64,000 nucleotides of DNA from Solirubrobacteraceae bacterium. Its GTDB lineage: Bacteria; Actinomycetota; Thermoleophilia; Solirubrobacterales; Solirubrobacteraceae. The position numbers and the translations under genes were made by a program. Each line of letters begins with the position of its first letter. Within the stretch, counting starts at the first letter, position 1. Location of the stretch: contig JAUJOF010000009.1 of NCBI GenBank assembly GCA_030447785.1, positions 1-64,000 of the forward strand. Direction: 5' to 3'. The notes below the pieces were generated by a model. That model did not search any database, was not told the origin of the DNA, and was given only the letters and a program-made list of their open reading frames with translations. This document shows, piece after piece, positions 7,647-13,994 of the stretch.

Positions 7647-8429
7647 TCAGCCCCCGACCCGCTCGGCGTGCGCGTAGACGTTCAGGCGGCCGCGCCGGGC
7701 GAAGCCCCCCAGGGTCAGCCCGAGCTCGTCGGCCAGCTCGACGGCCAGCGAGGACGGGGCGCCGACGCCGACCAGCACCGGCGCACCGGCGCGCACCGCC
7801 TTGTGGACCAGCTCAAAGGACAGGCGGCCGCTGACGCACAGAAGCAGGCCGTGGAGGGGCAGCGCGCCGTCGAGCAGCCGGCGACCCACCACTTTGTCCA
7901 CCGCGTTGTGGCGACCCACGTCCTCGCGCACGACCAGCAGGCCACCCTCGGCATCGAACAGGGCCGCCGCGTGCAGGCCGCCCGTGCGCGCGAAGGTCGG
8001 TTGGCGCATGCGCTCGGGCAGGTCGGCCAGCAGGGCGGCGGGGACCTCGGGTCCCGGCGGGGCGGGCGCGGCGCTCTGGCGCACGTCGGCAATGGCCCCC
8101 GCGCCGCAGACGCCGCAGGCCGAGGTGGTGGTGAAGGCGCGCGGATCGGGCTGGCGGGCGAGCGGCGAGCGCACCTCCACCGTGTTGGCCTCCAGCTCGT
8201 CGGTCAGGCCGACGTCGGGTGCCTGGTCGACCAGCGCCTCGGAGAACAGAAAGCCCGCGGCCAGCTCGTCGTCGTGCCCGGGCGTGCGCATCGTGACGCT
8301 CAGGGTCCGCCCGGCGTGGCGGATCTCCAAGGGCTCCTCGACCGCGACCTCGTCGCGCCAGTCGCCGCGCTGGACCACGGCGACCATCCCGCGCTTGCGT
8401 ACGGCGGTCGACACAGGCACGAGCGACAC
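7647..8429 (-). CDS. fdhD: Formate dehydrogenase accessory sulfurtransferase FdhD
   Basis: 260 residues from GTG 8429. FdhD transfers sulfur from the cysteine desulfurase to the bis-MGD cofactor of formate dehydrogenase and is essential for its activity. Visible family features: an EEPLEIRHAG opening, TPGHDDELAAGFLFSE, the redox/sulfur-carrying TSACGVCGAGAI (C-x-x-C), REDVGRHNAVDKVVG and the VSGRLSFELVHKA stretch. Several in-frame GTG codons precede the conserved core, so the start is uncertain by a few residues. Its place at the end of the formate dehydrogenase operon fits its role exactly. Confidence 0.93.
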   Translation of the reverse strand: MSLVPVSTAVRKRGMVAVVQRGDWRDEVAVEEPLEIRHAGRTLSVTMRTPGHDDELAAGFLFSEALVDQAPDVGLTDELEANTVEVRSPLARQPDPRAFTTTSACGVCGAGAIADVRQSAAPAPPGPEVPAALLADLPERMRQPTFARTGGLHAAALFDAEGGLLVVREDVGRHNAVDKVVGRRLLDGALPLHGLLLCVSGRLSFELVHKAVRAGAPVLVGVGAPSSLAVELADELGLTLGGFARRGRLNVYAHAERVGG

Positions 8430-8442
8430 CGGGCGCCGCGCG

Positions 8443-8724
8443 TCAGTCGCCCACGGCGGGCGCCTTGGCCCCGCCCATGGTCTTCTCGCGCCGCGCGGTC
8501 CATCGCCGGCCGGTGTGCTCGACGCTCGCGACGCGCCGCCCGATCGGGTCGTCGAGCCGTCCGGCACGCCCGCCCTCGGCGAAGACGAGCAGGTTGCGCT
8601 CCCCGCCCAGGACGCCCGTGACGATCTGCTGGGCACGCGCGGCGTCGAAGGCCTGCACCTTCTGGTCGTTGAAGGTGGTGGTCAGCGCGTTGAGCGCACG
8701 GCTGATCTCGACGTCGGTGGCCAT
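8443..8724 (-). CDS. 93-aa protein in formate dehydrogenase operon, function unknown
   Basis: 93 residues from ATG 8724, lying 13 nt after the NrfD-type gene and 13 nt before fdhD. No family recognised. The sequence is soluble-looking: an amphipathic N-terminal half (VEISRALNALTTTFNDQKV, then FDAARAQQIVTGVL) and a basic, probably beta-rich second half (GRRVASVEHTGRRW). The ATG has no convincing ribosome binding site, but tight packing between two functionally linked genes argues that it is expressed. A role in maturation or assembly of the enzyme is inferred from position only. Confidence 0.6.
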   Translation of the reverse strand: MATDVEISRALNALTTTFNDQKVQAFDAARAQQIVTGVLGGERNLLVFAEGGRAGRLDDPIGRRVASVEHTGRRWTARREKTMGGAKAPAVGD

Positions 8725-8737
8725 GGGAGGCGGAACG

Positions 8738-9790
8738 CTAGTCCCTGTGCGCGACGATGGCCGGGGAGGCCTTGTCGGTATCGACGCGGCCGTTGGGCGA
8801 GGTCCGGCGCACCGCTCCTCGCGTGTCGCCGCGCTCGATGCGCTCGCGCTGGGGCACGACCGTGTCATCCGGCCGCGCGGCGGACTGGAAGCCCGCCTTG
8901 AACACGCTCCAGCGCTCGCACAACGAGCCGGCGGTCACGAGCGCCGCGCCCGCCAGCGCGGCGGCGCGAGAGCGCCTCCCGCGCAGCGCGATGGCCGCGG
9001 CGCCGGCCGTGGTCATGGCCTTGGCCGCCATGCCCAGCCGCCCCGCCGGCCCCTCGTGATAGGGCTCTCCGACTGACCCCAGGCGGTGCTCCATGAGCTG
9101 GGTGGCGGCCACCTCGACGACCGCGCCGCCCACGGTCGCCCAGCGCGCCGGACCGGCGTGCTTCGCGGGCGTCCAGGCGGTCGCGAGCGCCCCGGCGCTG
9201 GCCGCCGCGCTGCCCGCGAAGACGAAGGGCAGCTCGTGGCGTGCCTCGTGCCAGACCGGGATCGCGGTGTCGGCCACCAGCGCCGCGGTGTAGGTGCCCA
9301 GCGGACCGCCCAGCGCCGCGGCGACGGCGCTCCCCGCGCGGCCCGCGCGCGGGAACAGGCCGGTCCAGGCGCGCACGGCGGCCAGCGCGATCGAGACGCC
9401 GCTGGCGCTGAGGATCCAGGTGCCCACGCTCATCGGCGAGGTGACCTTGAGGACGCGCAGCATGTTGAAGAAGCGGGCGGGCTTGCCCAGGTCGGCGATC
9501 AGGAACGCCGGGCTGGCGCCCGCGCCGGCCAGCGCGGCGGCCCACCCCCGGCGGGCGAGCTGGGGGTTGCCCTGGCCCTCGGCCAGGTGGGCGAGGATGG
9601 CCGAAGCGCCGGCCAGGCCGCCCGTGTAGAAGTAGCAGGGGATCTCCCAGGTCCACACCGGCTCCTTGAGGACCGGCCGGCCGTAGGGGGTGGTCTTCGC
9701 GCCCTCGTGGCCCACCGACGCCGGCCCGCGCTGCTGCGGACTTCCCGCTCTGCGCGCCAGCCGGGTGGTGCCCAGCTCGGGGCGGCTCAT
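8738..9790 (-). CDS. NrfD/PsrC-type membrane subunit of formate dehydrogenase
   Basis: 350 residues. After a hydrophilic start come ETPCY-like EIPCYFYTGGLAGASAILAH, then many hydrophobic segments including LIADLGKPARFFNMLRVLK and SPMSVGTWILSASGVSIAL, which are typical NrfD/polysulfide-reductase motifs, and about eight membrane helices in all. Such subunits anchor the molybdoenzyme-ferredoxin pair and pass electrons to the quinone pool. A soluble tail with basic residues ends the protein. ATG 9790 overlaps the ferredoxin gene stop (ATGA), so translation is coupled. The use of NrfD rather than a cytochrome b gamma subunit means no heme is expected in the membrane arm. Confidence 0.88.
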   Translation of the reverse strand: MSRPELGTTRLARRAGSPQQRGPASVGHEGAKTTPYGRPVLKEPVWTWEIPCYFYTGGLAGASAILAHLAEGQGNPQLARRGWAAALAGAGASPAFLIADLGKPARFFNMLRVLKVTSPMSVGTWILSASGVSIALAAVRAWTGLFPRAGRAGSAVAAALGGPLGTYTAALVADTAIPVWHEARHELPFVFAGSAAASAGALATAWTPAKHAGPARWATVGGAVVEVAATQLMEHRLGSVGEPYHEGPAGRLGMAAKAMTTAGAAAIALRGRRSRAAALAGAALVTAGSLCERWSVFKAGFQSAARPDDTVVPQRERIERGDTRGAVRRTSPNGRVDTDKASPAIVAHRD

Positions 9791-10707
9791 CGCCGCCCGC
9801 CCAACACCGCCGCGGTCAGCCCCGCGACCAGCGCGACCGCCGCGGCCGCGGTGGCGCGGTAGATGCCCCCGAGGTCGCGGGTGGTATCCACCGGATCGGG
9901 CGGAAGGTGGTAGGCCTCGGGCTCGTCGAGCAGCAGGAAGAAGGCGCCGAAGCCCCCGACGCCGTCCTGGTCGTCGGCCCCGTACAGGCGCGCCTGCTCC
10001 AGCCCCGCGTCGGTGAGCTGCTGGAGGCGTTCGTCCGCGCGCTCGCGCAGCTCGTCGAGGTCGCCATACTGGATCGAGTTGGTCGGGCAGGCCTGGGCGC
10101 AGGCCGGCTCCTTGTCGTCCTTCAACCGGTCGTAGCACAGGGTGCACTTCCACACCCGCCCGTCGTCCTGGCGCTGGTCGAGCACCCCGAAGGGGCAGGC
10201 GGGCACGCAGTAGCCACAGCCGTTGCAGATGTCCTCCTGGACCACCACCGTGCCGAACTCGGTACGGAACAGCGAGCCGGTGGGGCACACCTCCAGGCAG
10301 GCCGCGTGCGTGCAGTGCTTGCACACGTCGGAGGCCATGAGCCAGCGCATGCCCTCGCCGTCCTGGTAGGTCGCCAGGCCCTCGCTGCGGGCCATGCCCT
10401 CCAGCGCCGCGGCCTCGGCCAGGCTCATCCCCATGCCGTCGTCGACGTCCAGCGCCTTGCGCTGCTCGACGAAGGCCACGTGGCGCCAGGTGTCGGCGCC
10501 CAGGTCGATCGTGTTGTCGTAGCTCTCGCCGGTGAAGTAGGCGGGTTGGGCCCCATTCCGGGCCGGGACGTCGTTCCACTCCTTGCAGGCGACCTCACAG
10601 GCCTTGCACCCGATGCACACCGAGGTGTCGGTGAAGAAGCCCTTGCGCGCCCGGGCGTGCTCGCCGTAGGAGGACGGCCAGGCGGTGGTCGGCAGCGAGT
10701 AGCCCAT
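9787..10707 (-). CDS. Formate dehydrogenase beta subunit, four [4Fe-4S] clusters
   Basis: 306 residues. Four ferredoxin-type cysteine groups are visible: CIGCKACEVAC near residue 31, CKHCTHAACLEVCP, CNGCGYCVPACPFGV, and CTLCYDRL with CAQACP. This is the electron-wire subunit that links the catalytic subunit to the membrane protein. The C-terminus is hydrophobic (AAAAVALVAGLTAAVLGG), a likely single membrane anchor as in FdnH-type subunits. Compared with enteric FdnH there is an insertion of about 60 residues after the first cluster (TYQDGEGMRW region). ATG 10707 follows the catalytic-subunit stop by 2 nt. Confidence 0.93.
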   Translation of the reverse strand: MGYSLPTTAWPSSYGEHARARKGFFTDTSVCIGCKACEVACKEWNDVPARNGAQPAYFTGESYDNTIDLGADTWRHVAFVEQRKALDVDDGMGMSLAEAAALEGMARSEGLATYQDGEGMRWLMASDVCKHCTHAACLEVCPTGSLFRTEFGTVVVQEDICNGCGYCVPACPFGVLDQRQDDGRVWKCTLCYDRLKDDKEPACAQACPTNSIQYGDLDELRERADERLQQLTDAGLEQARLYGADDQDGVGGFGAFFLLLDEPEAYHLPPDPVDTTRDLGGIYRATAAAAVALVAGLTAAVLGGRR

Positions 10708-10709
10708 GG

Positions 10710-13700
10710 TCAGTCCCCGGGGTGGCGCGCCTCGTGGAGCACCCCGGCGCGGCGGCGGTAGCCCTCGACGTAGGCGGTCAGGTCCTTGCCGCGGGGGCGG
10801 CGGCCGGGCCGCACGTCGCAGGTGAGCACCTTGTACTCGGCGATGTGCACGTTGAGGTCGAGCACCATGGAGACCAGCTCGTTGGCCGCATCGCCCTTGG
10901 CGATGCCGTTGCGCCCCCAGTGGTAGGGAAGGCCGACCTGGTGGACGGTGCGGGGAGGATGGGATCCGATCGTCATCGGCCGCACGCGGTCGGTCACCAT
11001 CACGCGCGCCTCGATGGCCGTGCGCGCGGTGACGATGGTCGCCCAGTCGGCGTGGCGCAGCCCGCGCTCCTGGGCGAGCTCCGGGCTGACCTCGACGAAC
11101 AGCTCGGGCTGCAACTCGGCCAGGTAGGGCAGCGTGCGCGACATGCCACCGGCGGTGTGGTGCTCGGTCAGGCGGTAGGTCGACAGCACGAAGGGGAACA
11201 CGTCGCTGCCCGGCGGGTGATAGGGGTTGTCCTCCCGGTCGAACTCCTGTCGCGTGGGGTTCGCCCGCTGACCGTACAGGGCGTTGTCCACCGGCGACTC
11301 GTGGGGCTCGTAGTGGGTGGGCAGCGGCCCGTCCACCAGGCCGGTCGGCGCGTACAGCCAGCCCAGACCGTCGGGGTGCAGGATGAAGGGATTGGTGCCC
11401 CGCATGGCCGCCATGCCCTCGGCGTCCTCCTCGGGGACGTAGTCGGGCGCCTTGGTGGGCGGGAAGTCGACGTCGTCCCCCACGCTCTGCCACTTGCCCT
11501 CCTCCGCGCTCCACCAGACGTAGCGCTTGCGCTCCGACCACGGGTTGCCCTCGGGATCGGCCGACGCGCGGTTGTAGAGGATGTGGCGGTTGGACGGCCA
11601 CGCCCAGCCCCACTCCGGCGCGATCCAGTTCTGCTCGGTGTGGGGCTTCTTGCGCGCGGTCTGGTTCTCGCCGTCGTTGTAGATGCCGGCGTGGATCCAC
11701 GAGCCGCAGGCCGTCGAGCCGTCGGCCGCAAGCTCCTGGTACTTGCCCACGTAGCTGCCGTCGGCGTGGCGGCCGCCGATCTCCTGCAGCACCGCCTCGG
11801 CGTCGGGCTCGTCGTCGGGGCCCTGGGTCGGGTAGTCCCACGTGACGTCGAGGATGGGGCGATCGATCGGGTCGGTCGAGCCCTCCACGCGGGCCTTGAT
11901 GCGCTTGCCCAGGTGGTACATGAAGTGCAGCTCGCTGCGGCAGTCCTCAGGGGATTCGACCGCCTTGTGGTGCCACTGCAGCAGGCGCTGGGTGTTGGTG
12001 AAGGTGCCGTCCTTCTCGGTGTGCGAGGCCGCGGGCAGGAAGAAGATCTCCGTGCCGATCTGCTCGGGGGAGGTCTCCCCCGCCTCGATCTCCGGCGAGT
12101 CGTACCAGAAGGAAGCGGTCTCGATCTCGGCCAGGTCGCGGACCACCAGCCACTCCAGCGAGCTGAGCGCCTCGCGCTGCAGCCGCGCGTTGGCCGAGCC
12201 CACCACCGGGTTCTGGCCCACGGCGAACAAGCCTTTGCACTGCCCCTCGATCATGCGCACCATCGTCGGGTAGATCGAGTGGTCGCCGTCGATGCGCGGC
12301 AGGTGGTTGAAGCAGAAGTCGTTCTCCGCGGTGGCCGCCTCGCCGAACCATGCCTTGAGCAGGCTGGTCATGTACGTGTCGAGGCTGCCCCACGCGCCGG
12401 TCTTGGGCCCGTTCTTCTCCACGAAGGTGGCAAGCGTCGGCGTCTGCTGGGGGTGGGGCATCGGAATGTAGCCCGGCAGGATGTTGTAGAGCGTCGGGAT
12501 GTCCGTCGAGCCCTGGATGTTCGCGTGCCCGCGCAGCGCCATGATCCCGCCGCCCGGGCGGCCGATGTTGCCCAGCAGCAGCTGCACGATGGACGCGGCG
12601 CGGATGTTCTGCACGCCGTGGGTGTGCTGGGTCCAGCCCACCGCGTAGACGAAGGCCGACGTGCGCTCGCGCCCGGAGTTGTCGCACAGCCATTCGGCCA
12701 CCCGGACGAACTGCTCCTCGGGCACGCCGCAGACGTCGGCGACCATCTCGGGCGTGTAGCGCGCGAAGTGGCGGCGCAGGATCTGGAAGACGCAGTTGGG
12801 GTGCTCGAGGTCGAAGTCGACCTGGGGCGGCTCGCCGCGATCGAGGTTCACCCCGTGCGCGCCGTGGGCCTGCTCACCCGACACGTCGGCGGCCTGGACC
12901 TTCCCCCCGCCCGCCGTCTCGCCACTGGTGCCGGCGTAGCCCCAGGTGTCGATGCGGTAGAGCTGCTCGTCGGCCTGCCAGCCCGAGAAGAGGCCCGTCG
13001 GCTTGCCGCCCGCTCGGCTTCCGGCCTCGCTTGCTTGGGCGGCGCCGACGTCATCCGGCTGCGCCTCCGGGCCCTGGTAGCCGTCCTTGATGATCACGTG
13101 CGCGTTGGTGTAGTGGCGCACGTACTCGCGGAAGTCCCGGTCGTTTTCCAGGATGTAGCGGGCCAGGCCACCGAGGAACGCGATGTCGGTCCCGCCGCGG
13201 ATGGGGACGTGCAGGTCGGCCATGGCGCTCGTGCGCGTGTAGCGCGGGTCGACGTGGATGACCTTCGCGCCGCGCTCCTTGGCCTCGATCACCCACTGGA
13301 ACCCGACCGGGTGCTGCTCGGCCATGTTCGAGCCCATGATCAGGATGCAGTCGGAGTTCTGTAGGTCCTGCTGGAAGGTGGTGGCGCCGCCGCGTCCGAA
13401 CGAGGTGCCCAGACCGGGCACCGTGGAGGAGTGTCATATGCGCGCCTGGTTCTCGATGGAGATGGCCCCGGCGGCGGTGAAGAACTTCTTGATGAGGTAG
13501 TTCTCCTCGGTGTCCAGCGTGGCGCCGCCCAGGAAGGCCAAGCCGCGCGTGCGGTGCAGCGGCCTGCCGTCGTCGGTCTCCTGCTCCCAGGTCTCCTTGC
13601 GGGTCTTGACCACCCGGTCGGCGATCATGTCCATCGCCGTCTCGAGGTCGAGCTCCTCCCACTCCGTTCCGTAGGGACGGCGGTACTTGACCTTGGTCTC

Positions 13701-13994
13701 GCGCAGCGGGCTGTTGACCAGCTGCTCGGAGGCCGCGCCCTTGGGACACAGCCGCCCGCGCGAGATCGGCGAGTCCGGGTCGCCCTCGATCTGCACGACC
13801 TTCTCGTCCTTGACGTAGACCTTCTGCCCGCAGCCCACCGCGCAGTAGGGGCAGACGGACTGCACGACGCGGTCGGCGGTCTTCGTGCGCGGAGTCAGCT
13901 CCCGCGAGCGCCTGGACTGCACCGAGCGACCCAGCCCGAGGGGCTCGCGCAGCTGGCGCAGCAGGGGCGGCACGAGCTTCGCGTCGATCCCCAT
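10710..13994 (-). CDS. Formate dehydrogenase catalytic subunit, selenocysteine-containing
   Basis: 1,094 residues if the in-frame UGA at 13436-13434 is read as selenocysteine (residue 187). The enzyme oxidises formate to CO2 at a Mo/W bis-MGD centre. The N-terminal [4Fe-4S] motif is CPYCAVGCG with a later GRLCPKG. The frame before the UGA ends ENQARI and continues after it HSSTVPGLGTSFGRGGA, the exact context of the metal-ligand Sec/Cys in this family. Downstream are GSNMAEQHPVGFQW, HVDPRYTRTSAMA and the C-terminal MopB domain (TSHP-like IGSHPPRTVHQVG). No twin-arginine signal with hydrophobic core is seen at the N-terminus, so a cytoplasmic-facing complex is likely. A low-complexity insertion (GAAQASEAGSRAGG) lies near the middle of the first half. 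ATG 13994 has AGAGGA upstream. Annotation pipelines that do not decode UGA would split it in two. Confidence 0.93.
13404..13422 (-). promoter_or_regulatory. bSECIS hairpin for UGA-selenocysteine decoding
   Basis: Reading the minus strand, the UGA at 13436-13434 is followed by 11 nt and then a perfect 7-bp stem GGTGCCC/GGGCACC enclosing the 5-nt loop GGTCT. The distance from UGA to the loop is 18 nt. The GGUCU apical loop is the SelB-binding signature known from Escherichia coli fdhF, where the spacing from UGA is also 18 nt. The hairpin is embedded in codons for a conserved protein segment, so the RNA structure has been kept alongside coding constraint. Confidence 0.9.

What the first reader, a model, noticed from the sequence alone, without database searches (positions are those of the whole stretch)
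13404..13436. Selenocysteine formate dehydrogenase with a near-perfect bSECIS
An in-frame UGA splits the catalytic subunit at residue 187, exactly where the family has its Sec/Cys metal ligand (ENQARI-U-HSSTVPGLG). The hairpin 11 nt downstream has a 7-bp perfect stem and the GGUCU loop of E. coli fdhF, with an identical UGA-to-loop distance of 18 nt. This implies a functional selABC system elsewhere in a lineage where selenoproteins are sparse. Automatic annotation will show two broken genes.
Basis: partly seen in the sequence, partly recalled or inferred. Interest (0 to 1): 0.8.

Follow-up and report, generated by a model that had tools for sequence, protein, structure and literature searches.

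The report
Ordinary actinobacterial selenocysteine formate dehydrogenase
The broken-looking gene is a normal selenium-containing formate dehydrogenase, read through its internal stop codon by a standard RNA hairpin, and the same enzyme is common in this group of soil actinobacteria, so it is real but not surprising.

Summary
On the minus strand, UGA 13436-13434 sits in frame at residue 187 of a 1094-residue FDH-N-type catalytic subunit (10713-13994). A 7-bp perfect hairpin with loop GGUCU begins 11 nt later, and the UGA-to-loop distance (18 nt) equals that of E. coli fdhF, checked here. The same assembly carries selA, selB, tRNA-Sec (UCA anticodon) and selD. Fifty-six loci, mostly Solirubrobacterales, have the same UGA. 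Their stems covary, largely at synonymous third positions. Six Cys (TGC/TGT) homologues form one clade and lack the hairpin.

Two parts of the reading fail. Selenoproteins are not sparse here: 34 of 151 genomes of the order carry this UGA enzyme, close to the published 21.5% of bacteria using Sec. And the protein matches an existing NCBIfam 'exception' model (NF041513), so annotation need not break it.

One caveat is new. selB in this draft assembly is read across three frames, while about 20 other genes compared with relatives are intact. The codons on each side still look selected, so a sequencing error or very recent damage is likeliest; these data cannot say which. The finding is a new member of a known kind, of low interest.

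The parts
10713..13994 (-). fdhA: FDH-N-type formate dehydrogenase catalytic (Mo/W-bisPGD) subunit, 1094 aa with UGA read as Sec187, 121.4 kDa
13434..13436 (-). in-frame UGA (Sec187) at the metal-ligand position
   Evidence: aligns with the Sec of solved structure 1h0h and the selenocysteine position of 9qm0; UGA in 56 loci
13404..13422 (-). bSECIS hairpin: 7-bp stem GGUGCCC/GGGCACC, loop GGUCU
   Evidence: covariation
9787..10713 (-). fdhB: 4Fe-4S electron-transfer subunit (FDH-beta-like)
   Evidence: Pfam Fer4_11; TIGR01582 178.6 bits, below its 334.7 cut-off
8738..9787 (-). fdhC: probable NrfD-like membrane anchor (start not determined)
   Evidence: PF03916 NrfD in the ORF 8738-10579, residues 308-466; no NCBIfam match
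7647..8636 (-). fdhD: FDH accessory sulfurtransferase
   Evidence: PF02634, E 1.1e-63; TIGR00129 above cut-off

Best explanation
This is the catalytic subunit of an actinobacterial selenocysteine formate dehydrogenase (NCBIfam NF041513). It is encoded with a ferredoxin-like beta subunit, a probable NrfD-like membrane subunit and FdhD. During translation SelB carrying Sec-tRNA-Sec binds the GGUCU hairpin just downstream of the UGA and inserts Sec at position 187, the metal ligand. The enzyme then oxidises formate to CO2 and probably passes the electrons to the quinone pool. The UGA, hairpin, operon and sel genes are shown; Sec insertion, activity and the electron acceptor are inferred from the family.
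For: The read-through protein scores 1771.8 bits over residues 10-1082 of NF041513 (cut-off 1400) and matches the solved Sec FDHs 1h0h, 8bqg/9qm0 and 1kqf, with Sec187/His188 aligned to the active-site pair of 1h0h. selA (467 bits), selB (243.9 bits), tRNA-Sec (62.5 bits; ARAGORN tRNA-SeC, anticodon tca) and selD (372 bits) are all in the assembly. The same UGA occurs in 56 loci; the loop is GGUCU in 46 of 56 and R-GUYU in all but one. The stem covaries: 3 of 7 pairs change on both sides, score 0.182 against 0.076 +/- 0.015 shuffled (0 of 500), and sliding the partners by 1-3 columns destroys it. The covarying pairs join third codon positions (GTC...GGG against GTG...GGC; ACG...ACC against ACC...ACG; CCC...CTG against CCG...CTC), so the protein cannot explain them. 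GGU is used for only 7 of 104 Gly codons in this gene. Six Cys homologues have TGC/TGT, lose the full pairing and replace the Pro of VPGLG, and form one clade (SH-aLRT 95). selA is present in 30 of 34 Sec-FDH genomes, 0 of 5 Cys-only genomes and 14 of 110 genomes without this FDH (Fisher p 7e-16, Sec-FDH against all others).
Against: selB in this draft is split by two frame breaks (C21 about 121114-121133 and 121405-121459), while the same-genus relative G039 has it in one open frame. If the breaks are real, the UGA would act as a stop. The FDH and sel genes lie on different contigs of a draft that is 87.7% complete. Nothing here shows translation or enzyme activity.
Confidence: 0.93

Rival explanations
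1. The UGA now acts as a true stop: selB has recently been damaged in this organism, so fdhA is an orphaned selenoprotein gene that is no longer fully translated.
For: selB pieces match the relative at 73, 78 and 74% identity in three different frames. No other gene among about 24 G000 regions (31 kb) compared with relatives is split (the only other flagged pair is the antisense shadow of selB). G027 (97% complete) likewise has the UGA FDH but no selA, selB or tRNA-Sec was found.
Against: The differences from G039 fall 18/13/36, 12/11/42 and 18/14/41% on codon positions 1/2/3 in the three selB pieces, i.e. no relaxation. selA, selC, selD, the UGA and the hairpin are all intact. The assembly is a draft.
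Confidence: 0.1
2. The UGA is a sequencing error or a nonsense mutation of a Cys codon (TGC/TGT), and the hairpin is incidental.
For: Cys homologues with TGC/TGT exist; given the protein, 7 pairs arise by codon choice 11% of the time.
Against: The same UGA is in 56 loci, including isolates of Solirubrobacter, Conexibacter and Actinomadura; the hairpin covaries at synonymous sites and is lost in the Cys forms.
Confidence: 0.01

Closest known systems
NCBIfam NF041513 formate_DH_Act (formate dehydrogenase, 'exception' model)
   Same: Full-length match, 1771.8 bits against a cut-off of 1400
   Different: No difference found
E. coli FdnG/FdoG (FDH-N/FDH-O) and Desulfovibrio Sec-FDHs (PDB 1kqf, 1h0h, 8bqg series)
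   Same: Same subfamily (TIGR01553 above cut-off), Sec ligand and His next to it, 4Fe-4S binding Cys
   Different: No obvious Tat-type hydrophobic segment at the N-terminus of the window protein, and the membrane subunit looks NrfD-like rather than the cytochrome b of FDH-N (the latter from general knowledge)
Sec-FDHs of Actinomycetospora chiangmaiensis (PMC7176365) and Corynebacterium aurimucosum (PMC2830990)
   Same: Actinobacterial Sec-FDHs with UGA, alpha subunits of 1078 and 1089 aa and SelA/SelB/SelD; formate removal in A. chiangmaiensis was shown to depend on selenium
   Different: There fdh and sel genes are clustered; here the sel genes lie on another contig
E. coli fdhF bSECIS
   Same: Loop GGUCU, 18 nt from the UGA
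   Different: The stem here is one uninterrupted run of 7 G+C-rich pairs

Membership tests
NF041513 formate dehydrogenase (actinobacterial) | Whole-protein score above the curated cut-off | tested here: met
   1771.8 against 1400 bits
FDH-N-type molybdenum/tungsten formate dehydrogenase | Sec/Cys metal ligand followed by His, N-terminal CxxCxxxC...C 4Fe-4S motif | tested here: met
   U187-H188 and C48-x2-C51-x3-C55...C83 aligned to 1h0h and 9qm0
FDH-N-type molybdenum/tungsten formate dehydrogenase | Formate oxidation activity | not testable with these tools
   Needs biochemistry
bSECIS element | Stem-loop directly after the in-frame UGA with a conserved GU-containing apical loop at a fixed distance | tested here: met
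   7-bp stem, GGUCU, 18 nt as in fdhF; covariation
Sec-decoding trait | selA, selC (tRNA-Sec) and selD present | tested here: met
   All above curated cut-offs
Sec-decoding trait | Intact selB | tested here: inconclusive
   Present and above cut-off but read across three frames in the draft

The most novel reading that the evidence does not exclude
This organism is caught just after losing selB: an intact selenoprotein gene with its hairpin, tRNA-Sec, selA and selD, but a freshly broken decoder, so fdhA is an orphan awaiting a Sec-to-Cys change or loss.
Probability: 0.1. Interest if true: 0.35.

Novelty: new member of a known kind. Interest (0 to 1): 0.15.

Why it matters
It correctly rescues a gene that a simple ORF caller would split, and it shows that Sec-FDH is a regular feature of this order (Solirubrobacterales). 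The synonymous covariation and the single Cys clade make a clean case of RNA-level selection on a bSECIS. It does not change what is known about selenoproteins.

Tried and rejected
Rfam at gathering thresholds over the window: no match, hence no use for the hairpin. A whole-genome pattern scan for other UGA + 18 nt + RGUYUS sites gave 28 hits against 17 for the reversed control; besides the FDH none was followed, and no second Sec protein was sought with a full method. A codon-bias frame-break caller found both selB breaks but also many false ones: the UPF0014 and UvrD/PDDEXK domains run across two called breaks, so its rates are not used. The homology comparison was used instead.

Full report
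Observation. The minus strand of the window holds a 1094-codon frame, 13994 to 10713, interrupted once by UGA at 13436-13434, residue 187. Eleven bases later a perfect 7-bp stem closes the loop GGUCU (13422-13404). It folds at -14.8 kcal/mol in a 40-nt segment, z -1.84. In E. coli K-12 fdhF, read here from NC_000913, the UGA is codon 140 and GGUCU also begins 18 nt after it. Its mass estimate is a little low: 121.4 kDa.

How surprising is one hairpin? If the protein is kept and synonymous codons are redrawn at the gene's own usage, 11% of draws give all seven pairs and 0.8% give pairs and loop together. So a single hairpin is only moderate evidence; the comparative data settle it.

Comparative evidence. 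Relatives were fetched from named genomes and from 151 genomes of the same order. Fifty-six loci have the same UGA. In 37 distinct sequences the stem is 93.8% paired. Three pairs change on both sides, the covariation score is 0.182 against 0.076 for shuffles (0 of 500 as high), and sliding the partners destroys the signal. The covarying pairs join third codon positions of Val/Gly, Thr/Thr and Pro/Leu, so they are silent in the protein. Six Cys homologues carry TGC or TGT, have lost the full pairing and have replaced the Pro of VPGLG by Val or Ala. They form one clade with support 95, consistent with a single replacement of Sec by Cys, although the root is not fixed.

Machinery. The assembly has selA and selB side by side on contig 21, tRNA-Sec with a UCA anticodon and selD, all above curated cut-offs. 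Across the order, selA is present in 30 of 34 genomes with the UGA enzyme, in none of 5 with only the Cys form, and in 14 of 110 without this enzyme. Of the four UGA genomes where selA was not found, three have tRNA-Sec and only one (G027) does not.

The selB problem. selB in this draft is read in three successive frames. In the same-genus genome G039 it is one open frame as far as its contig reaches. The breaks lie near C21:121114-121133 and 121405-121459, in variable linkers. About two dozen other gene regions compared with relatives are unbroken. The codon-position pattern of differences from G039 is the same in all three pieces, so selection was acting until very recently or still is. A base error in the draft is the simpler reading, but reads were not available.

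Identity and function. The protein exceeds the cut-off of NCBIfam NF041513, an existing exception model for formate dehydrogenase (named formate_DH_Act), and of TIGR01553 (FDH-N alpha). It aligns with the solved Sec-FDHs through the 4Fe-4S cysteines and the Sec-His pair. Downstream lie a 4Fe-4S subunit, an NrfD-like membrane subunit and FdhD. The first 45 residues show no hydrophobic Tat-type segment, so the catalytic subunit may face the cytoplasm; that is an inference. The likely role is oxidation of formate to CO2 with electrons passed to the membrane.

Known or new. Sec-FDH is among the most widespread bacterial selenoproteins and 21.5% of bacteria were reported to use Sec (PMC5029168). 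Actinobacterial cases are published, including selenium-dependent formate removal (PMC7176365) and a clustered fdh-sel region (PMC2830990). In this order 34 of 151 genomes (23%) have the enzyme. The finding is correct but ordinary.

Noticed in passing
L009:12232-13834 (G000:C21:120231-121833): selB of the window's genome is split over three frames while the same-genus relative has one open frame; damage or draft error.
   Followed up: partly
genomes G039, G001, G069, G117, G133, G140, G147, G010, G028, G043, G049, G055, G094, G110: Fourteen genomes of the order have selA and selB but no FDH of this type; most showed no UGA in other FDH-like genes, so their selenoprotein is unknown. G140 has a different FDH (TIGR01591-like, L191) with an in-frame TGA next to selA.
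   Followed up: partly
genome G027: 97% complete, UGA-containing FDH but no selA, selB or tRNA-Sec found: a possible orphan selenoprotein gene.
   Followed up: partly
G000:C17:11511-11537 and G000:C34:39864-39890: Identical 27-mer TGATTAGCCTGCTAATCGGGTGGTTTG on two contigs, probably part of a longer repeat.
   Followed up: no
G000:C30:13246-14994 and G000:C41:31550-33298: Two FDH-like hits with identical scores and lengths on two contigs, possibly a duplicated stretch in the assembly.
   Followed up: no
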